DNA of 64,000 nucleotides from positions 3,346,501-3,410,500 of the forward strand of contig NZ_CP150660.1 of the NCBI RefSeq assembly GCF_038023995.1, in the 5' to 3' direction. The notes beneath the pieces were generated by a model, which saw only the letters and a list, made by a program, of their open reading frames with translations, made no database searches and had not been told where the DNA came from. Made by a program: the position numbers and the translations under genes. This document shows, in pieces, positions 4,753 through 25,058 of the stretch (within the stretch, counting starts at the first letter, position 1; every line of letters starts with the position of its first letter). The stretch comes from Polaribacter atrinae. GTDB taxonomy: Bacteria; Bacteroidota; Bacteroidia; Flavobacteriales; Flavobacteriaceae.

Positions 4753-6006
4753 ATGAAATACTCTTTTAAGCTAAAGCATCCGAATCAAGAAAAAGAAACA
4801 CTTATCTACTTTACATCATCTTTCAAAAATGAGGGTAAAACTTTTGTTTATTCTACAGGTGAAAAAATTGAGCCCAAGTTTTGGGATTTTAAAAATAAGC
4901 TACCATTGTCAAGGGGTAAAACTTCTAAGTTTTCTAATAGTATAAAATTACAATTAGATAGACATTCAAACCTTTTCTTAGAAACAGCTAGTTTATATAA
5001 GAAAATGAAAGAGGATTTTACATCAAAAACGTTGAAGTCAGCTTTTGATGAAGAGTTTAAAAAAACTACAGGCAAAGCAAATGTTTTTTTTGAAGCTTAT
5101 GATGCTTTTACTGCTGAGAAAACAAATAGTAAAGAATGGTCAGCTGCTACTGTTAAAAGATATAAGAATATTAAAAATTTACTTACAAAATTCGAAAATG
5201 AAAAAAAATATAAACTAACTTTTACTAGTGTTAATGATCGTTTTTATAGTGAGTTTACAGCTTATTGTTTGGATGATTTAAAGCATATTAATAATACGTA
5301 TTCTAGGAATTTAGGATTGATAAAAACATTTTTGTTTTGGTCTTTAAAAAATAAATACACATATAATGATTCTTTTATTTCCTTTAAGAAACTTGAAAGA
5401 GTAATAACAAAACAAATAGCCTTAACAATTGAAGACTTAAATAAATTACTTGAGTTTGATTTTGATTTAGAAAAACATGAAAGAGTAAGAGACGTTTTTG
5501 TTTTTGCTTGTGTTACAGGGATGAGATTTGGTGAATTATCATTGATAAAGAAAAGTAATGTAACCAACGAAAATATAATTCTTAAAGAAGATAAAGATCT
5601 CTCAAAGCCAGCAAGAGAAATACCGCTAACAAGTATTTCAAAATATCTCTTAAAAAAATACGATTATAAACTTCCTTTAATAGCTAATCAAAAGCAAAAC
5701 GAGTATATCAAAGAGGTTTTTCAAGAACTTGGATATACAGACCTTGTTCAGAAAGTAACTACTAAAGGGAAAGAAAATATAAAGGTAGAAATGTTTTACT
5801 ATGACAGAATAAGTACTCATACCGCTAGAAGAACCTTTATTACAATGATGAAGAGACAGGGGAAGAGCGATAAATTAATTGCATCTATTACTGGACATAG
5901 AGATATGAAAACGCTAAATCAGTATTATCAAGTTAGTGAACCAGAAAAGAAAGAAGCTATGGACGAAGTGTTTAATATTCCATTACCTAAATTGAAAAAA
6001 GCATAA
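4753..6006 (+). CDS. Tyrosine recombinase (site-specific integrase)
   Basis: This 417-residue enzyme cuts and joins the attachment sites to integrate and excise the element. The N-terminal part (about 1-95) looks like an arm-binding domain with KFWDFKNKLPLSRG, followed by a SAM-like core-binding region (about 110-210). The catalytic residues are visible: R258 in TGMRFGEL, H356-T-A-R359, H382 in the TGHRD box and the nucleophile Y391 (or Y392) in LNQYY. The length is normal for Bacteroidota integrases. The gene lies 150 bp from attL, reads into the element and is 9 bp from the next gene. The set looks complete, so the enzyme is probably active. Confidence 0.95.
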   Translation: MKYSFKLKHPNQEKETLIYFTSSFKNEGKTFVYSTGEKIEPKFWDFKNKLPLSRGKTSKFSNSIKLQLDRHSNLFLETASLYKKMKEDFTSKTLKSAFDEEFKKTTGKANVFFEAYDAFTAEKTNSKEWSAATVKRYKNIKNLLTKFENEKKYKLTFTSVNDRFYSEFTAYCLDDLKHINNTYSRNLGLIKTFLFWSLKNKYTYNDSFISFKKLERVITKQIALTIEDLNKLLEFDFDLEKHERVRDVFVFACVTGMRFGELSLIKKSNVTNENIILKEDKDLSKPAREIPLTSISKYLLKKYDYKLPLIANQKQNEYIKEVFQELGYTDLVQKVTTKGKENIKVEMFYYDRISTHTARRTFITMMKRQGKSDKLIASITGHRDMKTLNQYYQVSEPEKKEAMDEVFNIPLPKLKKA

Positions 6007-7296: not shown

Positions 7297-7319
7297 ACCG
7301 TATGTGGCAAATATACGGT
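7297..7319. promoter_or_regulatory. Inverted repeat before the VapE-type ATPase gene
   Basis: ACCGTAT (7297-7303) and ATACGGT (7313-7319) are perfect 7-bp arms around a 9-bp centre. The GTG at 7304, which would be the longest-ORF start, falls inside this palindrome. This favours the ATG at 7340 as the true start and the palindrome as a regulator site or leader hairpin. Confidence 0.45.
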
Positions 7320-7339
7320 TTAAAACTCTATTTACAAAA

Positions 7340-8500
7340 ATGGATAATGAAGAACTATACATAAATAATAAATTACTAAAGAACACTACAGTGTATGATA
7401 CGATTCATAAATATGTGAACGGTAGATATGAAATCGTACTCAATATAATAACACACGAATTACTAATTAGGTACAAAGGCTCTAAAGAATGGGAAGTTCT
7501 CAATGAAAAATCTTTAATGATTGAACTAACCAAAAAGAAAATTAAATTTAAAAAATTTGAATTAGAAACATATTTAGGTTCTAATTATATAAAACAAATT
7601 AACCCCTTAAAGCAATACTTTAATAATCTTAATAAATGGGATGGAGTAGATCATATTAAAAACCTAACCTCATACATTCCAACTGATGATAATGTGTTTT
7701 TTGAATATCACTTAAAAAAATGGCTTGGAAGAAGTATAAAAACTGCATTGGAAGAAAACTTCTACAACAAGCAATGTCTTGTGTTTCTTCAAGAAAAACA
7801 AAATTCGGGAAAGAGTAGTCTATGTAGGTTTTTTTGTCCGCCTGAATTAAAAAAACATATCGCAGAGAACATCAGTGATGATAAAGATGGATTAATCCAA
7901 CTGTGTAAAAACCTCTTAATCAATCTAGATGAAATAGATAAACTTTCGATAAAATACATAAACGCTTATAAATCGATGTTTTCAAAAACACACATAAACA
8001 TAAGGCTACCGTACGCAAAAAACAATTCACATCAGACCCGAAATTGCTCCTTTATAGGCTCAACTAACCTCATAAATTTTTTAAGAGATGAAACAGGTAA
8101 TGTTAGATGGGTTTGCATTGAACTCATAGGACAAATTGATTTTAATTACTCAAAAGACATCGATATCAATAAGGTTTGGGAGCAAGCTTTTCATCTAGCT
8201 TACAAGGACAAAAGTTTTAATTGTGATTTAACTGTGAATGACATAAAAGAAAATGAAGAAAGGAATGAAAACTATAAGCACACAACTATCGAAGAAGAGT
8301 TAATAAATCAACTGTTTGAAAAATCTGATAATAGAGATGATTTTATGACAACCACAACAATTACAATGATAATTAAGAAAGAGTATTCATCCGTAAGCCA
8401 CATAACGATTGGTAAAATTTTAAGAAAATTAAAGTTCAAGCGGGTTAACAGCAGAACCACAGGAGTAAAAGGATACTTAATTCAGTTACGAAAAAAATAA
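7340..8500 (+). CDS. VapE-like (virulence-associated E family) P-loop ATPase
   Basis: 386 residues from ATG 7340; the frame stays open to a GTG at 7304, but that start lies inside a palindrome. A Walker A-like QNSGKSS (K158) and Walker B with LLINLDEIDKL mark the SF3-helicase-like ATPase of the VapE family, as does the downstream FIGSTNLINFLRDETGNVRW, where GSTN and the R-W segment act as sensor and arginine finger. The C-terminal 60 residues look like a winged helix. In satellites and mobilizable elements this family is taken to support element replication together with the primase, which is the next gene here. A 15-bp hairpin separates the two. Confidence 0.82.
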   Translation: MDNEELYINNKLLKNTTVYDTIHKYVNGRYEIVLNIITHELLIRYKGSKEWEVLNEKSLMIELTKKKIKFKKFELETYLGSNYIKQINPLKQYFNNLNKWDGVDHIKNLTSYIPTDDNVFFEYHLKKWLGRSIKTALEENFYNKQCLVFLQEKQNSGKSSLCRFFCPPELKKHIAENISDDKDGLIQLCKNLLINLDEIDKLSIKYINAYKSMFSKTHINIRLPYAKNNSHQTRNCSFIGSTNLINFLRDETGNVRWVCIELIGQIDFNYSKDIDINKVWEQAFHLAYKDKSFNCDLTVNDIKENEERNENYKHTTIEEELINQLFEKSDNRDDFMTTTTITMIIKKEYSSVSHITIGKILRKLKFKRVNSRTTGVKGYLIQLRKK

Positions 8501-8518
8501 AAGTTTTCATCAAATCAC

Positions 8519-8562
8519 CTTACCCATCTTACCTATTTCATAAAAAAGGTAAGATGGGTAAG
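8519..8562. repeat. 15-bp perfect inverted repeat built from GGTAAG units
   Basis: CTTACCCATCTTACC (8519-8533) pairs fully with GGTAAGATGGGTAAG (8548-8562) around a 14-base loop. Each arm holds two GGTAAG hexamers 9 bp apart, giving four copies in 44 bp. It lies between the ATPase and primase genes. It lacks a T-run on either side, so it is more likely a protein-binding site or replication origin feature than a simple terminator. Confidence 0.6.
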
Positions 8563-8588
8563 ATAAAATCACCAAAAGAAAAATAAAA

Positions 8589-9431
8589 ATGAATTGTAAA
8601 AAAGCAAAAATAATAGATTTAGTTTCTTATCTGAAAAAACAAGGTTTTAGAACAGGTAAAACCACTATAAAAGACGTTTGGTTTTACTCTCCTTTTAGAA
8701 AAAATGAAAGAACCCCATCATTTAAAGTAGACATTGTCAAAAACGCTTGGTATGATTTCTCTGAAGGTGTTGGAGGAACAATAATTGACTTTATAATGAA
8801 ATACAATAATTGTTCTATTAAAGAAGCCTTAGTTATTTTATCAGGAGGTACTTTTTCTATTCACCAGCAAAAAGAACATGTTAAGAATGAACAAACGCCA
8901 ACCTATTCTATTAAAAAAGTAACAGAATTAACGAATCAAATATTATTAGATTATTTAAGTAGTAGGAAAATCAATTTAACATTTGCAAAGCGATTTTGTT
9001 TTCAAGTTCATTACTCTTTTTCTGAGGGTAAAGATTTATTCGGAATTGGTTTTATGAATGATATAGGAGGATTGGAAATTAGAAATAAATTCTTTAAAGG
9101 TTGCTTAGGAAAGAAAGAAATTACAACCATAAATAATAATTCTGATGTTGTTTCAATATTTGAATCTTGGTCTGATTTCCTTTCTTATCTCACTTTGAAA
9201 AAAGAAATACCTAAAGAAAATTTTATCATTTTAAACTCTACTTCTATGATAAAAAAAGTTATTGATTTACTAGGAGATTATTCTATAATCAAAGTTTTCC
9301 TTGACAACGATACTAGCGGAGACCAAGCTACCAATTTTTTAATAGAAAATACAAATAATAAAATTATAGACAAAAGAATTGATTACAAAAACTTCAATGA
9401 TTTAAATGATTATTTAATGAATCAAAATTAA
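8589..9431 (+). CDS. Toprim-domain primase with degenerate CHC2-type N-terminus
   Basis: 280 residues. The N-terminal domain matches the primase zinc-finger fold in its pattern (SPFRKNERTPSFKV, then WYDFSEGVGGTIIDFIM). The zinc ligands of a CHC2 finger are not in place: SPF stands where CPF would be. The C-terminal Toprim core shows the acidic E192 (FESWSD) and D239-N-D241 (FLDNDTSGDQA), which hold the catalytic metals. Likely role: primer synthesis for replication or second-strand synthesis of the transferred element. A single-base change of the start looks unnecessary, because the ATG at 8589 directly precedes the conserved region. Confidence 0.82.
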   Translation: MNCKKAKIIDLVSYLKKQGFRTGKTTIKDVWFYSPFRKNERTPSFKVDIVKNAWYDFSEGVGGTIIDFIMKYNNCSIKEALVILSGGTFSIHQQKEHVKNEQTPTYSIKKVTELTNQILLDYLSSRKINLTFAKRFCFQVHYSFSEGKDLFGIGFMNDIGGLEIRNKFFKGCLGKKEITTINNNSDVVSIFESWSDFLSYLTLKKEIPKENFIILNSTSMIKKVIDLLGDYSIIKVFLDNDTSGDQATNFLIENTNNKIIDKRIDYKNFNDLNDYLMNQN

Positions 9432-9557
9432 AGTAGTCAGTTCTTAGCCAGTCGTGGCTTTAATTCCTTTTTAGTGCCTACTTCGTGCCCTAAAAAGAAA
9501 TCAAAACCCGCTGGCTTATTCACAGAAAATGTTCATAAGAAAAAAAACAAAAGAAAA
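9432..9557. other. Candidate origin of transfer (oriT) region
   Basis: This is the non-coding gap before the MobC-like gene. It carries the small hairpin AGCCA-GTCG-TGGCT (9446-9459), CTGGCT complementary to AGCCAG about 60 bp further on, and a short direct repeat (GTGCCTA / GTGCCCT). Its base composition is less AT-rich than its surroundings. In mobilizable elements oriT normally sits just upstream of mobC and the relaxase gene. The location is the main argument and no nick site can be assigned. Confidence 0.35.
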
Positions 9558-9899
9558 ATGAAATCAGATTCAAACAATAAAGTAAAGGTCGTTTTTTACC
9601 TCAATGCAGAGGATAAAGAAGTCATTAAAATTCAATGTGAATCATTACAAATAAAACCTTCTTTTTTTTACAGAAATGCAGTTTTAGAAAAATTAGGTAA
9701 ACCAATATTTACAAAAAAAGTACATGATTTAGATACTAAGAAATATTTGACTTCTTTAATTAGAATTGGAAATAATTTAAATCAGATAGCAAAGAAATTA
9801 AATTCAAATGAGCAATTTTTAATCAAAGACCAACAAGTCGTTTTGAACGAAATTAAACATATCAATAACCACATTATAGAAATCAATTCAAAATTATAA
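9558..9899 (+). CDS. MobC-like relaxosome protein
   Basis: 113 residues from ATG 9558; an upstream GTG at 9474 is in frame but would translate the presumed oriT. The order of motifs fits the MobC mobilisation family: a ribbon-helix-helix-like start (VVFYLNAEDKEVIKIQCES), then IKPSFFYRNAVLEKLG, then the signature RIGNNLNQIAKKLN. MobC proteins open the DNA at oriT and help the relaxase nick it. Two genes downstream is the relaxase, in the same direction and closely spaced. Confidence 0.82.
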   Translation: MKSDSNNKVKVVFYLNAEDKEVIKIQCESLQIKPSFFYRNAVLEKLGKPIFTKKVHDLDTKKYLTSLIRIGNNLNQIAKKLNSNEQFLIKDQQVVLNEIKHINNHIIEINSKL

Positions 9900-9908
9900 A
9901 CCATTATT

Positions 9909-10520
9909 ATGGAAGAAAACACAAACAATGCCATCTTTACTTTAATGCAAAAAGTAGTAGATAAATTAGACGCTATTTCTAAAGATGTAAATAATATAGA
10001 CCAAACAGAATTAAGCCATGTTTTCTCAGAAGAGAATAAAGAGTTAAAAAACTTAATAGAAACAACTATTAGTAATCAACATGTACTTGATCAAAAAATT
10101 CTATCTAAAAAAGAAATAGATGATTCTATAAAAGAAAATGCAGTAACTCCTAATGTAAATAATTATACTGAATTCAGTTTATTAGGGAGTAAATCACACT
10201 TTAAACCTAAGACATTAATTATTATGCTTTTTAGTTTACTTATTATATGGAGTTCTATAAAATATCTTCCTGCCTATTTTATAAATAATAGCTCATTAAG
10301 TAAAGAAAAAGAAGAATATGAACTTTTCTATAATTATGTCTATTTAAAAGATTTTAAAAACAATGAAAACACCATTGCAAATGATATTCTAAAAAAGATA
10401 AAGCAAAAAGACACCTTGTTTATGAAAGAATATCATACTCTTTTAAGCACTTATCAACGAGAAATAAAAAAGCAAGAATTAAAAGAAGAACTAAAATTAC
10501 TTGACAATAATGATCGCTAA
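9909..10520 (+). CDS. Single-pass membrane protein between mobC and relaxase
   Basis: 203 residues, not recognised by family. An N-terminal helical part (about 1-60) rich in Asn, Glu and Lys is followed by one strong transmembrane segment at about 98-116 (TLIIMLFSLLIIWSS) and a charged C-terminal helical domain ending EIKKQELKEELKLLDNN. Genes of this layout are often found at this point in Bacteroidota mobilizable elements, which suggests a role in linking the relaxosome to a coupling protein at the membrane. Its last 11 bases overlap the relaxase start, so the two are translated together. Confidence 0.65.
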   Translation: MEENTNNAIFTLMQKVVDKLDAISKDVNNIDQTELSHVFSEENKELKNLIETTISNQHVLDQKILSKKEIDDSIKENAVTPNVNNYTEFSLLGSKSHFKPKTLIIMLFSLLIIWSSIKYLPAYFINNSSLSKEKEEYELFYNYVYLKDFKNNENTIANDILKKIKQKDTLFMKEYHTLLSTYQREIKKQELKEELKLLDNNDR

Positions 10521-11259
10521 ATTAGAATCCATAGCATACTTACAAAATGCGCTTGATTATTGTGAACGTGGAGGAGAATTAATAGCGTCCAATAAATGTA
10601 TCGGAAATAGTACTGAAATAAACTCTCAGATAGAAAGAAACAACGCTCTTAATGATAGATGTGTAAAAAATACTTTTCATATCAAAATAAGAATTGCTCC
10701 AGAAGACAAAGGAAAATTAAATACCCAAGAATGGATTGATATTTCAAACGATTATGCTAAAATGATTGGTTTTAAAGAGAATCCTTATGCTGTGTATATG
10801 CATGAAGAAGGTACAAATAAGGAACATATTCATATTGTAGCATCACGTATACAATCTAATAATTTAGCAGTTAGTGATAGTTACACGCATTATCAAAATA
10901 TGGACTTTTGTAGAATGATAGAAAACAAGTACAAGCTAAGACAAGTAAAACGTGTATTAGAAGCAGTAAAAAAACAGGAGGTATTTGTGAAAGGAGATAA
11001 AAGAATTGCACCATTGGAAGAAAAAATTAAATCTGCTATTAATCAATCTGATTCTTTTGAAGATTTTGAATTTCATTTAAAAAATATGGGAGTTAAAACA
11101 AAAAAAGGTAGAGGAATAGGTTTTATAGATGAAAAAGGTGTTTATATAAAAGGTTCTGATATTGATAGAAAATATTCTTTAAAAGGGATTGAAAAACAAT
11201 TATCATATGAAGAACAAGAAAAACGAATGAATAAAAAAAACAGGGGTTTTAAAATGTAA
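10510..11259 (+). CDS. Relaxase / mobilization nuclease (MobB-like, MOBP type)
   Basis: 249 residues from ATG 10510; a TTG at 10501 is also in frame. Relaxases nick oriT and stay covalently bound to the 5' end during transfer. The metal-binding histidine motif is visible: H98 in YMHEEGTNKEH, H106 and H108 in EHIHIVASRI, the HxH signature of the Relaxase (PF03432) family. The N-terminus AKLESIAYLQNALDYCERGG supplies the usual early Tyr and the YC/Y region of Bacteroidota MobB proteins. At about 250 residues it is on the short side, with no helicase or primase extension. It overlaps the upstream membrane protein gene. Confidence 0.85.
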   Translation: MIAKLESIAYLQNALDYCERGGELIASNKCIGNSTEINSQIERNNALNDRCVKNTFHIKIRIAPEDKGKLNTQEWIDISNDYAKMIGFKENPYAVYMHEEGTNKEHIHIVASRIQSNNLAVSDSYTHYQNMDFCRMIENKYKLRQVKRVLEAVKKQEVFVKGDKRIAPLEEKIKSAINQSDSFEDFEFHLKNMGVKTKKGRGIGFIDEKGVYIKGSDIDRKYSLKGIEKQLSYEEQEKRMNKKNRGFKM

Positions 11260-13019: not shown

Positions 13020-16000
13020 ATGAACAAAACAAATACCAGAAAAGCATTAAATCCTGCATATAGAAAACACAAACCTTTAAGAAAAGACGTTACAAACTTT
13101 ATAGTACAATTACAAGATTGTATTAATGCTGTAAAATTAAGTGACGATAATGGAGAAAGTGAAGAACATATTAAATCTCATTTTACAACTTTTTTTAATA
13201 CTACTTTTTATGCTAATAATTATATCAATACTAAAGACAGAATAGATTTAGCTATTTATTTAGAAGATAAACCAACATCTGATATAGGGGTAATTATAGA
13301 AGCAAAAAAGCCAAGTAACAAAGCCGAATTTTTAAGAGAAGACAATCTCAATAGAAAAGCATTACAAGAGTTGTTGTTATATTATTTAAGAGAAAGATTA
13401 GATAATAACAACAATAATATAAAACACCTAATTGCTACAAATGGCTATGAATGGTATTTGTTTAAAAGTGAAGATTTTTACAATTACTTCTTTAAAAACA
13501 AAGCCTTAATAAAAGAATATAAAGATTTTAGAGATGGTTTAAAAGACACTACTAAAAACGAATTATTTTACAATGAAATAGCTAAAAAATACATTGCAGA
13601 AATAGAGCAAGATTTGCCTTTTGTTCATTTAGATTTTACCAAGACCAATTTATCTAAACTAAAAGATGGTAATCTAAACACATTATATAAAATATTTTCT
13701 GATGTACATATTCTAGGGCATCCTTTTGGTAATGACAGTAACCAATTAAACAAAACATTCTATAATGAGTTATTGCACATTATTGGCTTAGAGGAAGTAA
13801 AAGACAAGGGCAAAAAGATAATAAATAGAAAAGAAGTTAAAGACAGAGATTACGCTTCTTTATTAGAAAATACAATATTTCATTTAGAAGATAGAGATTA
13901 CTTATCTAACATAAAAAGTATTCCTAATGGTGTAGATAAACCTTTTAATGCAGGTTTAGAATTATGTTTAACGTGGGTAAATAGAATTTTATTCTTAAAA
14001 TTATTAGAATCTCAATTATTAACCTATCATCAAAACGATGAAAAGTATAAATTCTTAAACGCAAAATTTATAAATGGTTTTGATGATTTAAATGATTTAT
14101 TCTTTTCTGCATTAGCAAAACAAGAAGACCAAAGACACCCAAAATATAAAGACAAGTATAAAGACATACCTTACTTAAATAGTTCTTTATTTGAGCGCAA
14201 TACGTTAGAAGGTGAAGCCTTTGAAATATCTGCTTTAAATAATGATGAAATTGCAATTTATAGCGGTACTGTTTTAAAAGATGCTAATGGTAAAAAGCAA
14301 AAAGGGAAACTTACTACATTAGAATATCTTTTTAAATTTTTAGATGCCTATAATTTTGCTACAGATGGTACAGAAGGTATAGAAGATGAGCAAGAAACCA
14401 AATCTTTAATTAACGCATCTGTTTTAGGTTTAATTTTCGAGAAGATAAACGGCTATAAAGAAGGTTCAATTTATACACCTGCATATATAACAATGTATAT
14501 GTGTAGAGAAACGATAAGAAGAACAGTAGTTCAGAAGTTTAAAGAACAAGAAGAAGACCAAATAGAAACCTTTCAAGACTTGCAATCTTATTGCGGTAAG
14601 AAATTTAAAGTTGATGATTTAAAGCGATTAAATAGCATTGTAAATAGTATTAAAATTTGTGACCCAGCAGTAGGTTCTGGACACTTTTTAGTAAGTGCTT
14701 TAAATGAGTTAATCGTTATAAAAAACGAATTACGCATTTTAACAGATGCCAAAGGAATGCCTTTGCGTTGCGATATAGAAATTGTAAATGATGAATTGTA
14801 TGTAATCGATGATAGAGGCGCATTATTTGAATACAACCCCACAGATAAAGAAAGTGTAAGAGTACAGCATACTTTATTTCACGAGAAACAAACTCTTATA
14901 GAAAACTGTTTGTTTGGCGTAGATATCAATCCAAATTCTGTAAAGATATGTAGACTTCGTTTATGGATAGAACTGCTTAAAAACGCATATTACACGCCTC
15001 AAAAAAGGTTACAAACATTACCTAACATAGATATTAATATTAAATGTGGTAACTCTTTAATTAGTCGATTTAATTTAGATGATGATTTAAAAAATGCCTT
15101 TAGAAACAGAAGGAATCAAGAAACTATAAAATATTCTCTTAAAGATTATAAAAACGCTGTTTTAGAGTATAAAGAGACCAATAGTAAAGACCGTAAAAGA
15201 GAAGTTTTACAAATAATAAATGAGGTTAAAAATAATTTTCAAAGTACACTTACTAATAGTGTTTTAGAAAATTATAGTAAAGAACAAGCGAAAGTGGTCT
15301 TAGAACAAGAGCGTCAAAATAATTTAAAATTATTTGATGAAAAAATAACAGCAGCAGACAAGAGAGTACTAAAAGAATTAAAGGCAAAGGCAGATAAAGC
15401 GTTAACAATTAAAAAAGAAATTGTAAATAATGCAGTTTATCATAACTCTTTTGAGTGGAGGTTCGAGTTTCCAGAGGTTTTAAATGATGAAGGTCAATAT
15501 ATTGGTTTTGATGCTGTAATTGGCAACCCTCCTTATGTACAGATGCAAAGTATGAAAGAAATGTCTAAAATTTATAAGACTTTTAAGTATGCTACTTTTC
15601 AAAGCTCAGGGGATTTATATGCGTTATTCTATGAAAAAGGAGAGCAAATATTAGCAAGTAATGGTTATTTAGGTTTTATAACAGGAAGTGCTTGGATGCG
15701 TGCAAATTATGGTAAATCTTTAAGAAACTTCTTTATTAATAAAACAGCTATTATAGAATTAATAGATTTTTCTGATTGTGAAATATTTGACTCTGCAACT
15801 GTACTAACCAATATTATGCTTTTTCAAAAAGCAAAACAAAATGTATCTGCAAAAGCTATTCGTTTTACAAAAAAAGACCAACATTTATTAGATAATTTAA
15901 AAAGTGTTTTTGATAAAAAAAATATAGCATTAGAAAATCTAACAGAAAATTCTTGGGTAATTTCAGATAATGAAACTTTTAAAATAAAAAATAAAGTTGA

Positions 16001-16784
16001 AAAAAAAGGTGTCAAATTAATTGATTGGAATGTTAAAATAACTTATGGTTTTAGAACAGGATATAATATTGCTTATATTCTAAATAAAGAATTAAAGGAA
16101 GCTTTGATTCAGATGGATTTGAATAACAGTGAATTAATAAAGCCTATGTTGCGAGGTCGTGACATTAATAAATGGCATCCTAAATTCGGTGAATTGTGGT
16201 TGCTTATTATTAAAAAAGGTGACAGTGATTATATAGAAGAAAACTTTCCAACAATTGTAAACTATCTAAATGAACATAAATTAAAATTAACAGAAAGAGC
16301 GCAAGTTAAAAATGGTTCTCATCATTGGTTAGAATTAGATAATAGCCCAAATGATGAGTATGTTAAACTTTTTTCAAAGCCAAAAATCATTTACCCTGAG
16401 CTAACTAAATTTTTAAATTTTACGATAGATAGAAATGGTGATTATGTAACGAATAATAAATGTTTTATTTTAACAGGTGAAAAAATATACTGGTTAACAT
16501 CATTTTTTAATAGTAAGCTATGGAGGTATTGTTTCGCTGAAAACTTCCCAGAATTACAAGGAAATACAAGGGAATTACGTAAGGTTATTTTTGAGCAAAT
16601 TCCAATAAAAAAAATATCTGATAAAGAAGAGCATAAGTTTAAAGAAAAGATTGAAGAAATTTTATTGCTTAAGAAAGAAGGTTCAGAAGAAAATATAGAA
16701 TTCATTGTAAGTCAAATAGACCAGATGGTTTATAAATTATATGATTTAACAGAAGAAGAAATTGCAATTGTAGAGAATAGTTAA
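13020..16784 (+). CDS. Type IIG (Eco57I-like) restriction-modification enzyme
   Basis: 1254 residues in one chain. The N-terminal endonuclease has a PD-(D/E)xK site (D76, E94-A-K96 in VIIEAKKPSNK) in a region like the DUF7149 start of flavobacterial Eco57I homologues (TRKALNPAYRKHK). The central N6-adenine methyltransferase shows the AdoMet motif D548-PAVGSGHF and the catalytic N836-PPY in IGNPPYVQM. The C-terminal 350 residues hold a TaqI-like target-recognition domain (PMLRGRDINKWHP, then WLTSFFNSKLWRY). Such enzymes methylate their site and cut unmethylated DNA nearby without a separate methylase. It is the first gene of a four-gene defence operon and is followed at 23 bp by the next. Length and motifs look complete. 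Confidence 0.92.
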   Translation: MNKTNTRKALNPAYRKHKPLRKDVTNFIVQLQDCINAVKLSDDNGESEEHIKSHFTTFFNTTFYANNYINTKDRIDLAIYLEDKPTSDIGVIIEAKKPSNKAEFLREDNLNRKALQELLLYYLRERLDNNNNNIKHLIATNGYEWYLFKSEDFYNYFFKNKALIKEYKDFRDGLKDTTKNELFYNEIAKKYIAEIEQDLPFVHLDFTKTNLSKLKDGNLNTLYKIFSDVHILGHPFGNDSNQLNKTFYNELLHIIGLEEVKDKGKKIINRKEVKDRDYASLLENTIFHLEDRDYLSNIKSIPNGVDKPFNAGLELCLTWVNRILFLKLLESQLLTYHQNDEKYKFLNAKFINGFDDLNDLFFSALAKQEDQRHPKYKDKYKDIPYLNSSLFERNTLEGEAFEISALNNDEIAIYSGTVLKDANGKKQKGKLTTLEYLFKFLDAYNFATDGTEGIEDEQETKSLINASVLGLIFEKINGYKEGSIYTPAYITMYMCRETIRRTVVQKFKEQEEDQIETFQDLQSYCGKKFKVDDLKRLNSIVNSIKICDPAVGSGHFLVSALNELIVIKNELRILTDAKGMPLRCDIEIVNDELYVIDDRGALFEYNPTDKESVRVQHTLFHEKQTLIENCLFGVDINPNSVKICRLRLWIELLKNAYYTPQKRLQTLPNIDINIKCGNSLISRFNLDDDLKNAFRNRRNQETIKYSLKDYKNAVLEYKETNSKDRKREVLQIINEVKNNFQSTLTNSVLENYSKEQAKVVLEQERQNNLKLFDEKITAADKRVLKELKAKADKALTIKKEIVNNAVYHNSFEWRFEFPEVLNDEGQYIGFDAVIGNPPYVQMQSMKEMSKIYKTFKYATFQSSGDLYALFYEKGEQILASNGYLGFITGSAWMRANYGKSLRNFFINKTAIIELIDFSDCEIFDSATVLTNIMLFQKAKQNVSAKAIRFTKKDQHLLDNLKSVFDKKNIALENLTENSWVISDNETFKIKNKVEKKGVKLIDWNVKITYGFRTGYNIAYILNKELKEALIQMDLNNSELIKPMLRGRDINKWHPKFGELWLLIIKKGDSDYIEENFPTIVNYLNEHKLKLTERAQVKNGSHHWLELDNSPNDEYVKLFSKPKIIYPELTKFLNFTIDRNGDYVTNNKCFILTGEKIYWLTSFFNSKLWRYCFAENFPELQGNTRELRKVIFEQIPIKKISDKEEHKFKEKIEEILLLKKEGSEENIEFIVSQIDQMVYKLYDLTEEEIAIVENS

Positions 16785-16807: not shown

Positions 16808-18541
16808 ATGGCAAAAGAAAAAAAAAAGGATTTTAAAAGTGATTGGGCTTATTCAGAAAAGCATGGTAAAAACATTCATATATCAGACGCCGAAAGCGGT
16901 TTAAAAGGATTTAGGTGTTTAGGTTGCCACGCACAAATGGTTGCCAACATTCAAAAGAAAAACCCTAATTGGCTTTCTTATTTTAGTCATCACGCTACAG
17001 ATGTCAATAAAGAAAAAATTGAATGCGTAAGAGCAAGTCAAGTTTACCGAGAGAAAATAGCACGTACAATACTTAATGAGCTAAAATATGTGAATGCTCC
17101 TGCTATATATAAATACCCTCCTTTAGATTCTGATGAAAATTTATTTCCAATGAAAATTGAAAGTAGAAGGAAAATTGAGGCAGCTTATACAAAGGCAGAA
17201 TTATCCTTTTACGAAAATGAAGATGGGGTAATTGAATGGGGTAAAAACCGAACGATTACAGATAAAGATTTACTGATTAGACCAGATGTTACATTCTTTA
17301 ATAAAGATAATAAACCAATATTATTTATTGAATTTATTGTGTACAGTAAAATAAAACCAGATAAATTTTTAAAGTTATCAAGATTAGGTATTGATACACT
17401 TCAAATAAATATTCCAAGAAAATCTGAAGCAGACATTGAAAAAGCATTAAAATCATCAAGAACATATAAATGGGTCTATAATGAAAAAGAAGCCAACACA
17501 GAGTACATTCCAATATTCAGAAAAGATACAGAAGACTTATCACAGATTAATGATAACGATAGAATCTTTTTTGAAGAAGATTTCAGATGCAGACAAACAG
17601 AAATTAATTGGCTCATACGTAGCGTTAAGAGAAATTTACAATCAGAACAATACAGAACAACTGAACTCGGACTTAACCAGCAAATACAAAAGGTTGAGAG
17701 AAATACAGAAATCGAAAATCAGAGATTGGGAGACTTGGAAGAATCAAATAGAAGAGTCGCACTTGCTAGAAATTCAAACGAAGAAGACCAAGAGGATAAA
17801 GAATACGCAGAACTGGAAAGAAGATATTTTGCAGAAAAGAGAAGACTTGAAGATGCTATCTACAACGCAAGTGTCGACCAAAAATTTAGATCAGAACTTA
17901 TCGAAAATATCAGAATTGAAGAAGAAGAAATTAAAAGAATTGAACGAGAAGAGATTGACTTTGAGACTGAAATTAGAGAAAGAGTACAAAATAAATTTAG
18001 CGGTTCTATTAGAAGAGAAAAAGAAGAAATCGATAGTCTTGAAGAAACAATTCGAGACTCCTTTGATAGAGAAATACTTGCTACAGAACGCATTATTACA
18101 ACACTTGGAATATCGTACAATGATATACCAAGAGAAGTTTCTGAAAGATTTAGATATAAAGAAGCAATTATCTCATCAAGAATTAAATCAACAAGAGAAA
18201 AAAATAAAGACCTTGAAAGAGCCTTATCTAATGAATTTGAAGGAAAAATCAAGTTTGAAGAATCAGAAATTAAAAGAATTAAACGAGAAACAGCAGAGTT
18301 TTTGGAAATTTCAGAGTCAGAAAAAGAACGAATTAGAAAAGAAGAAGGAAATATTGAAGAATCAGCTAGAAAAGAATTTAATAGGGAAATTGAAAGTAAT
18401 GCCAGAGAACTTTCCAAAGAATTTACAAATTTACTGGAAGTACAAAGAGTGGGTAACAATTACCAAGAGCTTAAACTCCTTGAAAAGCGATATAAGTCAG
18501 CACGAAAGTTTCTTTCAAAGAGAACTTGGGAAAAAGAATAA
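16808..18541 (+). CDS. CoiA-like nuclease fused to a long coiled coil, in the restriction operon
   Basis: 577 residues. A possible zinc site is formed by C37-LG-C40, H61/H62 and C73. Next is a segment very like the CoiA nuclease core, RPDVTFFNK..LFIEFIVYSK (D160, E175) followed by KFLKLSRLGIDTLQINI. Residues about 250-577 are a highly charged Glu/Arg/Lys coiled coil. CoiA itself is a competence protein with a restriction-nuclease fold; here the context is defence. The usual lysine of PD-(D/E)xK is not at its normal place (EFIV), so activity is uncertain. In the coil, Leu is mostly CTT, not TTA as in the N-terminal part, and the +1 frame is open for 375 codons (17481-18608). The stop falls after an A5 run at 18531-18535. 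One base fewer there would extend the protein into a tail ending at 18608, 8 bp into mcrB. Confidence 0.72.
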   Translation: MAKEKKKDFKSDWAYSEKHGKNIHISDAESGLKGFRCLGCHAQMVANIQKKNPNWLSYFSHHATDVNKEKIECVRASQVYREKIARTILNELKYVNAPAIYKYPPLDSDENLFPMKIESRRKIEAAYTKAELSFYENEDGVIEWGKNRTITDKDLLIRPDVTFFNKDNKPILFIEFIVYSKIKPDKFLKLSRLGIDTLQINIPRKSEADIEKALKSSRTYKWVYNEKEANTEYIPIFRKDTEDLSQINDNDRIFFEEDFRCRQTEINWLIRSVKRNLQSEQYRTTELGLNQQIQKVERNTEIENQRLGDLEESNRRVALARNSNEEDQEDKEYAELERRYFAEKRRLEDAIYNASVDQKFRSELIENIRIEEEEIKRIEREEIDFETEIRERVQNKFSGSIRREKEEIDSLEETIRDSFDREILATERIITTLGISYNDIPREVSERFRYKEAIISSRIKSTREKNKDLERALSNEFEGKIKFEESEIKRIKRETAEFLEISESEKERIRKEEGNIEESARKEFNREIESNARELSKEFTNLLEVQRVGNNYQELKLLEKRYKSARKFLSKRTWEKE

Positions 18542-18600
18542 AACTTTAGAGTGGTTTTTATCAACATATAAAGATGAAATAGAGAAGAATTTAGAAAGCT

Positions 18601-21087
18601 ATGAGTAACATATCAAACAATATAAATAAAGAGCATATAATTTCTGCTTTACAAGAAATAGATAAATATGGTATATCAAACTCAAGAAGAAGTGCTACTG
18701 AATATGCATTATTATATAATGAAAAAGAATATCCACCAAAATATGTAATATCTATTGCTAATAAATATGCTAATAATGAAGAGTTGAGTTCCAATGAATT
18801 TAACTCAATTCAATCCAGAACTTTTTTAAATAAACTTGGTTTTAATTGTTTTAAAAAAACAGGTTCATTAAAAAGTAAATTTGCAAACTGGTTATTAATA
18901 AATGGAGCAAATTCTTACAAAGATTATTATGGTAATTCAGTAGAAGAGATTGAAATTAAATTAGATGAAATAAATAGTTTTTTTGATTCAAGAGATTTAT
19001 TTAAGTTAAATAATAATATCGAAGAATTAAAGAACTTTTTACAAGAAAATATTTATGGGGTAAATAGAGAAAATAATAGAGTATTTTTTGAATATGATAA
19101 GATAAAAGGTAATGGAAGACCAAAAGCTATTTTAGGTAAAAAAAATTATTTTATTTTTTTAGATGAAATAAACTCTATTAATAATAAAAATATTGAAAAT
19201 AGTCTTAAACAAAGTTTAACAATAACTCACAAAATGGAATTTTTCACCCACAGAGAATTTGAACTACTTAATAAGTACAAAGGTGTACGTTCAGATAGAG
19301 CTAATAAAGATTTAGATAATACTTATACAGAATTAAAAACAGCCTATAAAAAGTTAGAATATTGGTTAAATAGAATACAGAAAAATGTATTTCCAAACGG
19401 AGGTAAACATATTTTAAAAAAACCAACTAATCAAGCAAACAATTTTGATGGTTATTTGTGGGCAAAACTATATCCAACAAAAAAAGATGAAAAAGATAAA
19501 TGGTTAGCAATAACTCTTGGGTTAGATGATGATTTTCACTTTAACGTAAAGATAGATACAGTTGGCTTATCAAATAACCCTGAATTATTAAATAAGTATC
19601 TAAATTATAGAGGAGATTTTTTAAAATCAAAAATAGTTAAAAGGCACAAGTCAGAAAGTTTTAATAACTGGGAAGATTTAATACTGCAGACTGTAAAAAA
19701 TATTGATTTTTTAATGGATTTTTATCCAGAAATAAAAAAATTAAATGATTCATCTTCAAATGAAACAAGTATTATGAAAGATTTAAAAATTCCGAAAAAT
19801 CAGATTTTATATGGCCCTCCTGGTACAGGAAAAACATATAAAACAAAAGAGTTAGCTGTTCTAATTTCAAATCCAAATTTAATCTATGATAAAAACTGGT
19901 CTGTCATTAAAAGAAGAGAAGAAATAGTAAAAGAATATGATAGACTTTGCGAAAAAGGTCAAATTGTTTTTACTACTTTTCATCAATCTATGAGTTATGA
20001 AGATTTTGTAGAAGGTATAAAACCAAAAACTGAAAACGAAAAAGTTACTTATGAGGTAGAAGATGGTGTTTTTAAATTGATAAGTGATAAAGCAAAGGAT
20101 AATTGGGAGGCTCACAACAAAAGATTTGAAAAAGAGTTAGCCTTCGATTCTGTATTTAGTCGGTTAAAGGAAGAATGGGAAGAAGACGATTCTATAAAGT
20201 TTCCTATGAAAACCGATGGCAATGATTTTACAATTATTGGCTTTACAAATAAATCTATTCAATTTAAAAAAGCAAGTGGAGGCACAAATCACACATTAAG
20301 TATAAATACGTTAAGAGAGATTTTTTATGATGAAGGAAAGAATAGACCAACTGGTGTTGGTATTTACTATCCACCAATTTTAGCATATTTAAAAAAATAT
20401 AAACCACACACAGATGTGCCAACTATTTTAAATAACTATATTTTAATTATTGATGAAATTAACAGAGGTAATGTTTCTGCTGTTTTTGGTGAATTAATTA
20501 CATTGTTAGAAGATGATAAACGTATTGATGAAAAGGAAAGTATAAAAATCACATTACCATATTCTAAAGATGAATTTAGTGTACCTTCAAATCTTTACAT
20601 CATTGGTACTATGAATACAGCTGACAGAAGTGTAGAAGCATTAGACACAGCTTTAAGAAGAAGATTTTCATTTACAGAAGTTGTACCAAATATTGCAATG
20701 TTAACAGAAAATGAAATGGAAAATATTAATTTAAGAAAACTATTACAAACCATTAATGAAAGAATAGAATTACTAATTGATAAAGACCATAAAATAGGAC
20801 ATTCCTATTTTATGAAAATTGAAAGTATTGAAGATTTAAAACAAACCTTTAAAAACAAAGTAATTCCATTATTAGAAGAATACTTTTTTGGAGATTATGG
20901 TAAAATTGGGTTGGTTTTAGGTGATGGATTTATTAAATTAAAAGATGATGAGGATAAAATTTCTTTCGCCAAAAACTTTACAGAAAAATATGAAGATGCA
21001 GAGAATTTAAGAGAAAAAGCAGTTTACACTTTTACAGGTGAAGATAACTGGGATAGAAATACTTTTATTTCAATTTATGAGCAATAA
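18601..21087 (+). CDS. mcrB: McrB-like GTPase/AAA+ subunit of a modification-dependent restriction system
   Basis: 828 residues. The N-terminal 75 residues resemble the ScoMcrA head domain (EKEYPPKYVISIANKYAN). A central substrate-recognition region (about 200-375) has YLWAKLYPTKKD and a WLAITLGLDDDF stretch. The AAA+ motor of the McrB family begins at G405-PPGTGKT412 and continues with FTTFHQSMSYEDFVEGIKP, Walker B LIIDEINRGNVSAVFGEL and the McrB signature IIGTMNTADRSVEALDTAL. It hydrolyses GTP and moves along DNA with McrC to cut modified DNA. It starts 59 bp after the CoiA-like gene stop and is followed at 2 bp by mcrC. The target modification depends on the N-terminal part and cannot be read. 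Confidence 0.93.
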   Translation: MSNISNNINKEHIISALQEIDKYGISNSRRSATEYALLYNEKEYPPKYVISIANKYANNEELSSNEFNSIQSRTFLNKLGFNCFKKTGSLKSKFANWLLINGANSYKDYYGNSVEEIEIKLDEINSFFDSRDLFKLNNNIEELKNFLQENIYGVNRENNRVFFEYDKIKGNGRPKAILGKKNYFIFLDEINSINNKNIENSLKQSLTITHKMEFFTHREFELLNKYKGVRSDRANKDLDNTYTELKTAYKKLEYWLNRIQKNVFPNGGKHILKKPTNQANNFDGYLWAKLYPTKKDEKDKWLAITLGLDDDFHFNVKIDTVGLSNNPELLNKYLNYRGDFLKSKIVKRHKSESFNNWEDLILQTVKNIDFLMDFYPEIKKLNDSSSNETSIMKDLKIPKNQILYGPPGTGKTYKTKELAVLISNPNLIYDKNWSVIKRREEIVKEYDRLCEKGQIVFTTFHQSMSYEDFVEGIKPKTENEKVTYEVEDGVFKLISDKAKDNWEAHNKRFEKELAFDSVFSRLKEEWEEDDSIKFPMKTDGNDFTIIGFTNKSIQFKKASGGTNHTLSINTLREIFYDEGKNRPTGVGIYYPPILAYLKKYKPHTDVPTILNNYILIIDEINRGNVSAVFGELITLLEDDKRIDEKESIKITLPYSKDEFSVPSNLYIIGTMNTADRSVEALDTALRRRFSFTEVVPNIAMLTENEMENINLRKLLQTINERIELLIDKDHKIGHSYFMKIESIEDLKQTFKNKVIPLLEEYFFGDYGKIGLVLGDGFIKLKDDEDKISFAKNFTEKYEDAENLREKAVYTFTGEDNWDRNTFISIYEQ

Positions 21088-21089
21088 TT

Positions 21090-22337
21090 GTGGGTAAGAA
21101 AAATCTCATACAAGTATTTGAATATCAAAAATTAAAATTTGATAGCAAAGAAAACGATTTTACTGAAAGTCATTTTAATGCTATGGTCAAATTTAATGAG
21201 AAGAACGATAATAAATATTATACAATAATTCACAGAGGAATAAAATTCAATAGTTATGTTGGTGTAATACAGATTAACGGTTTAACAATTGAAATACTTC
21301 CTAAAGTAGATAAGGATAATTCTAATTCAGAATTACAAAAACAAACGTGGCAAAATGTCTTATTAAATATGCTTAAAGTATGTAAGCATATCAATGTAGA
21401 TAATATATCTGAAACTGCTTTAAAGAAGAGATACAACTCAATTTTAGAGGTGTATTTTGAAATGTATTTAAATGAAATTGAAGAACTCATTCAAAAAGGA
21501 TTGATTAAAAAATATAGAAGAGTTCAAGAAAATCAATTAGCTTTAAAAGGTAAGTTGGTTTTTACGAAAAATATTCAAAAGAATACTATACATAAAGAAC
21601 GTTTTTATTGTGAACATCAAGTCTATGATAAAGACCACTTAACACATCAAATATTATATAAAGGGTTAAAGATTTTAAACAGTTTTTTAAGTTCTAATCT
21701 TAAAGACAAATTGAATAGAATTCTATTTCATTTTTCTGACTTTAAAGAAGTAAATATTAATAGTTCTCATTTTTCAAAAATAATACCAAATAGAAAAACT
21801 CAACCTTATAATAAAGCAATTGATATTGCTAAAATGATAATATTAAATTATTCTCCTAACCTTAATTCTGGTAATGATAATATGCTAACATTACTTTTTG
21901 ATATGAATAAATTATGGGAAGAATATGTGTATAGAATATTACAAAAGCACAAACCAAAAGACTATTATGTATCTCCTCAAAATTCAACAAGGTTTTGGGA
22001 ATCAAAAAGAATAAAACCAGATATAATAATAAAACATAATGATGAAACCTATATCATTGATACTAAATGGAAAATTGTAAGTTCTTACAAACCATCTGAT
22101 GATGATTTAAAGCAAATGTTTGCATACAATCTATTTTGGAAAGCAGGAAAGAGTATGTTATTGTATCCTAAAATAAATCAAGAAGATAGTATCTTTGGAA
22201 GTTACCATCATATTCCAAATGAAAACGAGGTTAATCAATGTAAATTGGGGTTTATAAATATTATAGATGAAAATGGATTAAGAGAAAGTAAAAATATTGC
22301 TGATGAAATATTTGAGAAGTTTATGCTTGTTTTTTAG
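21090..22337 (+). CDS. mcrC: McrC-like nuclease subunit
   Basis: 415 residues, read from GTG 21090 because no ATG occurs in frame before the conserved region. McrC gives McrB its cutting activity. The N-terminal beta-rich region has IIHRGIKFNSYVGVIQINGL, typical of the McrBC 5-methylcytosine restriction component. The PD-(D/E)xK site is complete in the C-terminal half: P310-D311 in KRIKPDIII, D324-T-K326-W in YIIDTKWKIV. The 2-bp spacing shows coupling to mcrB. After its stop there is a 124-bp gap with no hairpin of note, then the operator of the toxin-antitoxin unit. Confidence 0.92.
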   Translation: MGKKNLIQVFEYQKLKFDSKENDFTESHFNAMVKFNEKNDNKYYTIIHRGIKFNSYVGVIQINGLTIEILPKVDKDNSNSELQKQTWQNVLLNMLKVCKHINVDNISETALKKRYNSILEVYFEMYLNEIEELIQKGLIKKYRRVQENQLALKGKLVFTKNIQKNTIHKERFYCEHQVYDKDHLTHQILYKGLKILNSFLSSNLKDKLNRILFHFSDFKEVNINSSHFSKIIPNRKTQPYNKAIDIAKMIILNYSPNLNSGNDNMLTLLFDMNKLWEEYVYRILQKHKPKDYYVSPQNSTRFWESKRIKPDIIIKHNDETYIIDTKWKIVSSYKPSDDDLKQMFAYNLFWKAGKSMLLYPKINQEDSIFGSYHHIPNENEVNQCKLGFINIIDENGLRESKNIADEIFEKFMLVF

Positions 22338-22421: not shown

Positions 22422-22466
22422 TTCACTTTTAAGTGAAATAAATTTGTAAATTAACTTATAAGTGAA
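22422..22466 (+). promoter_or_regulatory. Promoter and palindromic operators of the toxin-antitoxin-chaperone operon
   Basis: The palindrome TTCACTTTTAAGTGAA (22422-22437) is followed by the -7 box TAAATTTG (22439-22446). A second site AACTTATAAGTGAA (22453-22466) comes next. AAGTGAA is the shared half-site, present three times. A second box, TAACTTTG, lies at 22467-22474. The layout suits repression by the HTH antitoxin encoded by the second gene. Confidence 0.65.
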
Positions 22467-22986
22467 TAACTTTGCACACATAAAACCATTATTCAAATTA
22501 AAAACAGTAGCTTATTATTCTGTTTGTTTAGAAGATAATGATGTAACACTTTATCAAGAATTTGTTGAAAAGCATACACTTGAAAATAAAAACAAGTTAT
22601 ATCATATTCAAAAATGGTTACAACTTATAGGTGAAAAATATGGTGCACAAAATCGTTTTTTTAGAAATGAAGCAAAAAATGCAGACACTTCAGCATTACC
22701 GCCAATTGGCAAAGACCGGAAACCTTACTATGTGGAATATGGTAAGAAAAAGGCAAATAATTTAAGGTTATATTGTTTAAAAGCAAATCCAAACGTTGTT
22801 TTTCTCTTTAGTGGAGATATAAAAACAACACAAAAAGCACAAGATTGTCCAAATGTTAGAAAACATTTTAATTTAGCAAATACACTAACTAAAGCCATTG
22901 ATAACGCTTTTAGAGAAAACGATATTATTTGGAACGAAGATTGCACTTTAATTAAATGTGATGAAGATTTTATTCTTTATTATTAA
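22462..22986 (+). CDS. RelE/HigB-like toxin
   Basis: 174 residues from GTG 22462; no ATG is available in frame near the start, and the GTG lies inside the second operator. The C-terminal half shows the RelE/HigB pattern: NNLRLYCLKANPNVVFLFSG, then an IKTTQKAQDCPNVRKHF segment and a long helix NTLTKAIDNAF. The N-terminal 80 residues are an extra alpha-rich part, longer than in a minimal RelE toxin (about 90-100 residues). Family toxins cut mRNA on the ribosome. It is 11 bp upstream of an HTH gene, the toxin-first order of HigBA systems. Confidence 0.75.
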   Translation: MNNFAHIKPLFKLKTVAYYSVCLEDNDVTLYQEFVEKHTLENKNKLYHIQKWLQLIGEKYGAQNRFFRNEAKNADTSALPPIGKDRKPYYVEYGKKKANNLRLYCLKANPNVVFLFSGDIKTTQKAQDCPNVRKHFNLANTLTKAIDNAFRENDIIWNEDCTLIKCDEDFILYY

Positions 22987-22997
22987 AACAAACAAAA

Positions 22998-23369
22998 ATG
23001 GAATTTCCTAAAGAAAACATACTTAACAACTGGTTAGAAGAAAATAAAAATCCAGAAATAGACAGATTTATTGAGCGTAATTTAGAGATTACTCAAGAAG
23101 TTTGTGCTGTTTTGAAAACTCGTGGTATAAACAAAAAAGAGTTTGCTAAAATGTTAGGTAAAAGACCGTCTGAAGTTACAAAGTGGTTATCAGGTTTACA
23201 TAACCTTACATTAAAAAGCATTACAAAAATGGAAGTAGCTTTAGGTGTAAATTTAATGAATCCAGAGCCTAAATATATTTATTTAGGTAAAGTAGATGGT
23301 GGTTCTAAAGATTTAGCGGTAGCTATAGATAATTATGAACAAACATATTACACGCAAGAAGCTGTATAA
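22998..23369 (+). CDS. HTH (Xre-type) antitoxin with C-terminal extension
   Basis: 123 residues. The Xre helix-turn-helix spans about 30-85 (RGINKKEFAKMLGKRPSEVT, then KWLSGLHNLTLKSITKMEVA). A 35-residue tail after it is rich in aromatic and hydrophobic residues (PKYIYLGK, DNYEQTYYTQEAV). In toxin-antitoxin-chaperone systems such a tail is the chaperone-addiction segment that exposes the antitoxin to degradation unless a SecB-like protein binds it. It overlaps the next gene by one base (TAATG). It is expected to bind the AAGTGAA operators upstream. Confidence 0.8.
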   Translation: MEFPKENILNNWLEENKNPEIDRFIERNLEITQEVCAVLKTRGINKKEFAKMLGKRPSEVTKWLSGLHNLTLKSITKMEVALGVNLMNPEPKYIYLGKVDGGSKDLAVAIDNYEQTYYTQEAV

Positions 23370-24666: not shown

Positions 24667-24680
24667 GTGGAGACGCCGAG
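24667..24680. repeat. attR core within the ssrA 3' end
   Basis: GTGGAGACGCCGAG is the second copy of the 14-bp direct repeat. Its complement CTCGGCGTCTCCAC is the tmRNA T-stem side and acceptor stem, so integration left a functional 3' end. Confidence 0.88.
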
Positions 24681-25058
24681 AATCGAACTCGGGTCCAAAC
24701 GAGCAGCCAAAAAGCTTTCTACATACTTAGTTCTTTCTTAATTTTCGACTAAAGGTTGATTAAGAACAATCTGCCTTTAGCTTATCTTCTTTAGTTTCAA
24801 AAATTTGCCGAAGCTTCAAATTTTCTATATTTACTTTTACGATGCCCAAAAGTGAATCGCCGTAAATCAAGGCTATTCGTGGACATAAAGCTTGCACACC
24901 TAGTGTGCCGAGGCCAATCCTACTGTGATTCGGATTAAGCAGCTAAAGCGTAGTTATCTTCGCCGTTTAAAAAGTTGAAATTAGGTTTTACGAGTGTTAT
25001 TTCATAACTCGGTATGCTTACAAATTCACTGTCCTCGCTGTCAAAACCAGTCGTCCCC
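24668..25058 (-). ncRNA. ssrA: tmRNA (SsrA)
   Basis: About 391 nt. tmRNA rescues stalled ribosomes and tags the unfinished protein. The 5' end reads GGGGACGACTGGTTTTGACA, the usual bacterial tmRNA start. The 3' end has the T-arm CCGAG-TTCGATT-CTCGG and the acceptor strand CGTCTCC with discriminator A. GGGGACG pairs with CGTCTCC (one G-U). CCA is not encoded. The tag reading frame at 24935-24964 encodes (N)GEDNYALAA followed by TAA, close to the GENNYALAA type of flavobacteria. The gene is the integration target of the element. Confidence 0.95.

What the first reader, a model, noticed from the sequence alone, without database searches (positions are those of the whole stretch)
16808..18541. 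CoiA-like nuclease with a long coiled coil, encoded inside a restriction operon
The protein combines a possible zinc site (C37, C40, H61/62, C73), a CoiA/PD-(D/E)xK-like core (RPDV at 158-161, D160 and E175) and a Glu/Arg/Lys coiled coil of more than 300 residues. CoiA is known from competence, not defence. Here it lies between a type IIG enzyme and McrBC with short gaps, which suggests a DNA-processing role in phage or plasmid restriction. The coil could be a sensor or an oligomerisation arm. I do not know a described defence system with this architecture.
Basis: partly seen in the sequence, partly recalled or inferred. Interest (0 to 1): 0.75.

Follow-up and report, generated by a model that had tools for sequence, protein, structure and literature searches.

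The report
Two proteins from one stretch
A bacterial nuclease gene in a defence region appears to encode, in a second reading frame of the same DNA, a whole second coiled-coil protein that annotation has missed; over a thousand bases seem to serve two proteins at once, which is very rare in bacteria.

Summary
The reported protein (ORF A, 16808-18541) is real: invariant C37/C40/H61/C73, D160 and E175, a predicted PD-(D/E)xK-like core and a helical tail of about 300 residues, between a type IIG enzyme and McrBC.

The main result was missed. The coil DNA also carries a second ORF in the +1 frame (ORF B, 17481-18608, 375 aa), sharing 1,061 bases with A and ending on the start of mcrB. In 49 loci (window included) the +1 frame holds 2 stops against 367 expected under synonymous permutation; third frame 2106 against 2005. 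With B's protein fixed, A's frame holds 0 stops against 695. B's ATG persists although A's residues there vary. B runs on past A's stop. Over all 59 loci examined, the +1 frame is open through the overlap in 57.

Most likely both proteins are made and pair through coils whose lengths are matched by shared DNA; pairing and anti-phage function are inferred. Translation was not shown directly. The CoiA link is weak by sequence, and a CoiA domain is already reported in phage defence.

The parts
16808..18541 (+). ORF A: CoiA/PD-(D/E)xK-like nuclease head (residues 1-~240) plus long helical tail (259-577)
16916..17026 (+). ORF A possible zinc site: codons C37 (16916-16918), C40 (16925-16927), H61 (16988-16990), C73 (17024-17026)
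   Evidence: invariant in 57 sequences; metal binding inferred
17279..17332 (+). ORF A active-site candidates: RPDV codons 158-161 (D160) to E175
   Evidence: P159, D160, E175 invariant; fold matches over about residues 70-230
17481..18608 (+). ORF B: second protein, 375 aa, +1 frame, unannotated; helical N-terminal part, K/L-rich coil, conserved C-terminal end
17481..18541 (+). dual-coding region, 1061 bases
17481..17483 (+). ATG of ORF B inside ORF A codons N225/E226 (AAT GAA)
   Evidence: ATG at the aligned site in 47 of 49 loci although A's residue pair varies; GTG in one, ATG 6 codons on in one
18542..18608 (+). ORF B tail beyond ORF A's stop; B's stop overlaps the mcrB start (ATGAGTAA from 18601)
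13020..16784 (+). type IIG restriction-modification enzyme
   Evidence: PDLC03612 E 7.5e-268; Eco57I
18601..21087 (+). mcrB-like AAA protein
   Evidence: AAA_5; NCBIfam PRK11331 E 2e-39 but below its cut-off
21090..22337 (+). mcrC
   Evidence: PF10117 E 2.3e-66

Best explanation
The locus is a dual-coding gene pair. Shown by sequence comparison: ORF A (nuclease head plus E/R-rich helical tail) and ORF B (a separate 375-aa helical protein in the +1 frame) are both kept open and constrained over a shared stretch of about 1.06 kb, in homologues across Bacteroidota, with a conserved internal start codon for B and a B end beyond A's stop. Inferred, likely: B is translated from its own internal ATG on the same mRNA, so A and B are made together. 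Inferred, plausible: A and B pair through their coils. Hydrophobic positions of the two coils coincide more than background (in part a consequence of the code: A codons ending in TT before A or G give Leu in B), the coils carry on average opposite net charge, and any in-frame insertion or deletion changes both arms together, so their lengths stay matched. A's head would cleave nucleic acid; B and the variable coil would control or target it. Inferred from neighbours only: it acts against phages or incoming DNA, as a unit not tied to one restriction system.
For: 49 loci, window included: +1 stops 2 observed, 367 expected (permutation) or 801 (flanking codon usage); third frame 2106 against 2005/2069. 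Reverse test: A-frame stops 0 observed, 695 expected. Head-region control: 729 observed, 700 expected. Substitutions by codon position: head .18/.11/.43, overlap .37/.29/.29. Six near pairs: dS of A .30-.96 in the head.05-.25 in the overlap, a 1.4- to 9.7-fold drop; dN/dS of B .37-.48. Start codon kept while A's residues vary. B's stop overlaps the next ORF's start in the window, L002, L006 and L047. Later loci: no +1 stop in 6 of 7. Six-frame searches with A and with B hit the same 4 of 395 genomes. Background: longest +1 run at most 131 codons in 398 other ORFs and 101 in 32 coil-rich ORFs, against 188-370 in 50 A genes. Shared hydrophobic positions .52 against .21. Charges. Fold. Neighbours.
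Against: No expression, proteomic or phenotype data were seen. In 2 of 59 loci (L007, L064) a frame change sends A into B's C-terminal frame and B is cut short. In L042 both frames end early (about codon 410), and in L027 A stops early while B's frame stays open. In L056 the A profile match crosses one stop. In the window's own near pair (L001/L002) A's dS falls only from .30 to .21. Only 3 of 34 other loci with a co-directional next ORF show B overlapping it; in the rest the gap is 5 to 1650 bases. Complex formation was not modelled; charge ranges overlap (A -9.8 to +3.7, B -2.2 to +11.8 per 100 residues); both models have low pTM (.36.31). No random-locus control for the neighbourhood. The family is rare (in one search only the window's own genome of 97).
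Confidence: 0.75

Rival explanations
1. Programmed +1 ribosomal frameshifting: ribosomes start at A and slip within the overlap, giving a head-coil-B-tail fusion as a second product; B is not started separately.
For: The +1 frame is open through the overlap. L007 and L064 carry a natural frame change that gives such a fusion.
Against: A start codon lies at the aligned site in 48 of 49 loci (47 ATG, one GTG) and 6 codons on in the last, although A's residues there vary. In 16 of 49 loci a +1 stop lies five codons before it. B's first 75 residues or so align as a conserved protein. Slippery sites were not searched for systematically.
Confidence: 0.1
2. Toxin-antitoxin-like pair: A is a toxic nuclease and B is its inhibitor, made from the same mRNA so that inhibitor always accompanies toxin.
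For: Same-message overlap, mobile and defence context, shared hydrophobic pattern compatible with contact.
Against: Two loci keep a long A with B cut short, which would be harmful if A were toxic alone; toxicity not tested.
Confidence: 0.25
3. Only A is real; the +1 frame is open by accident because E/R/K codons (GAA, AGA, AAA) rarely give stops in that frame.
For: Composition does lower the expectation: 367 stops under permutation against 801 with flanking codon usage.
Against: 2 stops against 367 expected; codon-position pattern; start codon; tail beyond A's stop; coil-gene control.
Confidence: 0.03
4. Only B is real downstream of A's head, and A's tail frame is open without function.
For: A's first codon position (B's third) changes most in the overlap; B's dN/dS is lower than A's there in all 6 near pairs.
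Against: A's frame has 0 stops against 695 expected with B fixed. A's identity in the overlap is about as high as B's (.64 and .66 over 16 chosen pairs).
Confidence: 0.05

Closest known systems
CoiA / CoiA-like family (Pfam CoiA_N PF25164; also DUF7830, DUF7828)
   Same: Distant match in the head (CoiA_N in 13 of 38 members, best E 0.001); Cys/His cluster and PD-(D/E)xK-like core; one homologue named CoiA family in a plasmid record
   Different: The CoiA nuclease-domain model (recalled) is not among the 25 of 27 families shown; 300-residue coil; second gene in the +1 frame; restriction and defence surroundings
CoiA-domain anti-phage system of E. coli (PMC9519451; passages read)
   Same: A CoiA domain in a functionally selected defence system
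   Different: Not compared by sequence here; the passages read say nothing of a dual-coded partner for it
Thermus rnpA-rpmH nested genes (described in PMC9841429, passages read)
   Same: Two proteins from one bacterial same-strand stretch in different frames
   Different: There the two starts lie side by side; here B starts 673 bases inside A and 1061 bases are shared
Overlapping genes of E. coli O157:H7 (PMC9927249, one passage; PMC4683798, search listing only)
   Same: Hidden genes overlapping annotated ones
   Different: PMC9927249 concerns antisense genes; here same strand, with comparative support in about 50 loci

Membership tests
PD-(D/E)xK nuclease superfamily | alpha/beta core with conserved acidic residues | tested here: met
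CoiA family | significant match to a CoiA profile | tested here: inconclusive
   Window protein: no CoiA match at E up to 1. Members: CoiA_N 13 of 38, best E 0.001
CoiA family | role in transformation | not testable with these tools
   -
Same-strand overlapping gene pair | both frames open beyond chance and constrained | tested here: met
Same-strand overlapping gene pair | both proteins translated | not testable with these tools
   no expression data at hand
Known anti-phage defence system (PADLOC) | match to a described component | tested here: not met
   ORF A and ORF B: no PADLOC family at E up to 0.1
Toxin-antitoxin system | toxicity of one part neutralised by the other | not testable with these tools
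   -

The most novel reading that the evidence does not exclude
A defence machine whose two protein arms are written in the same 1 kb of DNA. Because one stretch encodes both coils, every in-frame insertion, deletion or module swap changes both arms in step, so length and heptad register stay matched while the coil diversifies quickly by recombination. Overlapping genes here would be a design that keeps two partners in register, not genome compression.
Probability: 0.35. Interest if true: 0.93.

Novelty: new variant of a known kind. Interest (0 to 1): 0.86.

Why it matters
A 2008 survey of annotated prokaryotic overlaps above 60 bases accepted none of the 715 co-directional ones and gave 56 bases as the longest real co-directional case (PMC2478687, abstract and one section read). 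Here about 1,060 bases are shared on the same strand, with constraint on both frames visible across Bacteroidota. It gives a natural case for testing how one sequence serves two proteins. It shows that annotation can hide a whole partner of a defence-associated nuclease: a search of about 5.8 billion proteins with the B alignment returned one hit, on a 1448-base contig (in which only the 7990 best candidates were scored). And it offers a testable reason for a long overlap: matching the lengths of two coiled-coil partners.

Tried and rejected
Accident of purine-rich coding: rejected by the permutation, head-region and coil-gene controls. Reading A as a single coil protein: rejected by the substitution pattern. 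Sequence search of solved structures gave only weak matches, read as coil background (A: 35 at E up to 1, best 0.0018; B: 48, best 0.00052, apolipoproteins and other helical proteins). Foldseek with the B model: 3 matches, best E 5.6. Foldseek with the A model: none below E 0.001. Phage records: no match. Viral contigs: one locus, L054, whose A protein is identical to L017's. Background ORFs: 398, longest +1 run 131, longest +2 run 193; none was as rich in E/K/R/Q as A over its whole length (above 0.33), so a coil-gene control from SMC_N- and RmuC-matching loci was added.

Literature: eight searches returned results; the listings and the passages read showed no description of this pair. PMC13092281 has no occurrence of 'CoiA' or 'overlapping' in its main text. 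Most subscription papers are not held.

Rows dropped before counts: L007, L027, L042, L051 and L053 were left out of the 49-locus tests after one search had been seen; L051 and L053 are fragments and were left out too. L007, L027 and L042 were tested afterwards: +1 stops 5, 0 and 0 against 9.4, 4.3 and 3.7 expected. Of seven later loci L064 gave 18 against 14.1 expected; the other six gave 0. Totals over all 59: 25 observed against about 439 expected. Near-duplicates L011/L012 and L017/L054 are inside the 49; pairs at 99.5% identity or more were left out. L040, L048, L012 and L054 were left out of the B alignment A5. The tallies show the first 25 families only. Pairs were chosen by me.

Full report

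The missed gene. The ORF list shows a second 375-codon ORF, 17481-18608, in the +1 frame. Reading homologues downstream showed the same +1 frame open in almost all of them and running past A's stop (window: KTLEWFLSTYKDEIEK), while the third frame is full of stops. The homologues are 52 loci from one scan of genome contigs and one viral contig. With the window, and without the fragments L051 and L053, 52 loci were examined. Their record titles name Flavobacteriaceae, Cytophagaceae, Pedobacter, Paludibacter and other Bacteroidota.

Frame tests. Keeping A's protein and permuting synonymous codons from codon 231 to the end, 49 loci (window included) hold 2 stops in +1 against 367 expected; with codon usage from flanking genes 801 are expected. 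The third frame has 2106 against 2005 and 2069. The two remaining +1 stops (L045, L049) lie before B's start in loci where B starts later. Keeping B's protein and permuting its codons, A's frame has 0 stops against 695 expected. The head of A (codons 2-205) behaves normally: 729 observed, 700 expected. With the three loci dropped before these tests and seven fetched later, the +1 frame is open through the overlap in 57 of 59 loci. L007 and L064 are the exceptions: a frame change sends A into B's C-terminal frame. In L042 both frames end early, in L027 A stops early, and in L056 the A profile match crosses one stop.

Substitution pattern. Over all pairs between 50 and 99.5% protein identity, differences per codon position are .18/.11/.43 in the head and .37/.29/.29 in the overlap: the usual third-position excess disappears. 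In six near pairs dS of A is .30-.96 in the head and .05-.25 in the overlap, a drop of 1.4-fold (the window's own pair, L001/L002) to 9.7-fold; B has dN/dS .37-.48 and A .60-.99 there. Recombination can give the two parts different ages, so the position pattern is the safer evidence. On DNA alignments of 16 chosen pairs, A and B are about equally conserved in the overlap (.64 and .66).

Start and end of B. An ATG lies in +1 at the aligned site in 47 of 49 loci; one has GTG there and one has ATG six codons on. The A residues spanning it vary: NE 24, NG 9, YE 4, HE 3, NV 3, HV 2, YV 1, HA 1; all are NAT followed by G, so the ATG is kept while A's protein changes. B's stop overlaps the next ORF's start in the window and L002 (8 bases) and in L006 and L047 (4 bases). 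Among 34 other loci with a co-directional next ORF by my mechanical ORF call, 3 overlap, 2 lie 5 bases on, and the rest 16 to 1650 bases on.

Hidden from annotation. A search of about 5.8 billion proteins with the B alignment found one, on a 1448-base contig; only the 7990 candidates sharing most words were scored. A search with residues 1-100 of the window's B had 15 candidates and no hit. Four plasmid records carry A as a hypothetical (3) or CoiA family (1) protein; their table, known to be incomplete, lists no B.

Is a long open +1 frame ordinary? In 398 other ORFs of at least 250 codons from these loci and the window the longest +1 run is 131 codons (median 44; longest +2 run 193), against 188-370 (median 329) in 50 A genes. 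In 32 coil-rich ORFs near SMC_N and RmuC matches of related genomes the longest +1 run is 101, median 33.

What B looks like. 375 aa, all-helical model, mean pLDDT 81, pTM 0.31. Its conserved parts are the first 75 residues or so and a C-terminal stretch. B's coil is rich in K and L, A's in E and R. Both show hydrophobic periodicity near 3.5-3.6 (A 2.5-2.7 times, B 1.8-1.9 times shuffled). Where B is hydrophobic, A is hydrophobic at the same codon in 52% of cases against a 21% background; part of this follows from the code. Mean net charge per 100 residues is -2.1 for A's coil and +4.4 for B's (window -3.8 and +9.1), with overlapping ranges.

Module exchange. Among 11 chosen pairs, several change abruptly near codon 300: L008 and L016 are 82-99% identical in DNA before it and 44-61% after; L021 and L052 are 45-74% before and 81-88% after. 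Others, such as L032/L035, show no break. The coil part, and with it most of B, can be exchanged or diverge as a unit.

Neighbourhood. A type IIG-like cluster occurs in 13 and an McrC cluster in 7 of 52 loci, near-duplicates included. Of 43 co-directional genes within 700 bases upstream, 30 besides the window's were scanned one by one, 12 were not. I judge 15 of the 30 to carry a restriction, nuclease or defence-type domain (Piwi, Schlafen helicase, PDDEXK_4, McrC, GIY-YIG, HsdR, reverse transcriptase, GmrSD, HerA, PIN, Panacea antitoxin); 7 carry other domains and 8 none. No random-locus control was run. The family is rare: 4 of 395 Bacteroidota genomes, and separate searches with A and with B hit the same four; among 97 relatives only the window's own genome had it.

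Interpretation. That B is a real, selected gene is strongly supported; direct translation evidence is lacking. That A and B pair through their coils is an inference from matched length, shared register and mean charge. That the pair defends against phages or plasmids is an inference from neighbours, the nuclease head and an E. coli precedent for a CoiA domain in defence (PMC9519451, passages read).

Known context. A 2008 survey accepted none of 715 co-directional overlaps above 60 bases; the longest real one it named is 56 bases (PMC2478687, abstract and one section). Thermus rpmH nested in rnpA is a known same-strand case (PMC9841429, passages). Other papers argue that overlapping genes are undercounted (PMC8665328 and PMC7457138, passages). 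None of the passages and listings I saw describes this pair.

Noticed in passing
window 4753-25058: Likely mobilisable element: an integrase-like ORF at 4753-6006 (recognised by eye, not by a profile), VapE-like, Toprim primase, NikA/MobC and relaxase genes at 7304-11259, the restriction cargo, and a tmRNA gene at 24667-25058 on the - strand that could be the integration site.
   Followed up: partly
window 22462-23369: Two genes matching PADLOC candidate defence families PDC-M64A (E 3.1e-89) and PDC-M64B (E 1.3e-53) directly after mcrC.
   Followed up: no
L007 and L064: In both, a frame change joins A's coil to B's C-terminal sequence and cuts B short; a tolerated natural fusion would fit A and B working together, or they are decayed copies or sequencing errors.
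   Followed up: partly
L002:7637-9715: The gene upstream of the closest homologue carries a Piwi domain (E 3.1e-10); an McrC-cluster gene lies two genes downstream.
   Followed up: no
L011:8328-9842: A reverse transcriptase gene (RVT_1 E 8.9e-16) lies directly upstream of the A/B gene.
   Followed up: no
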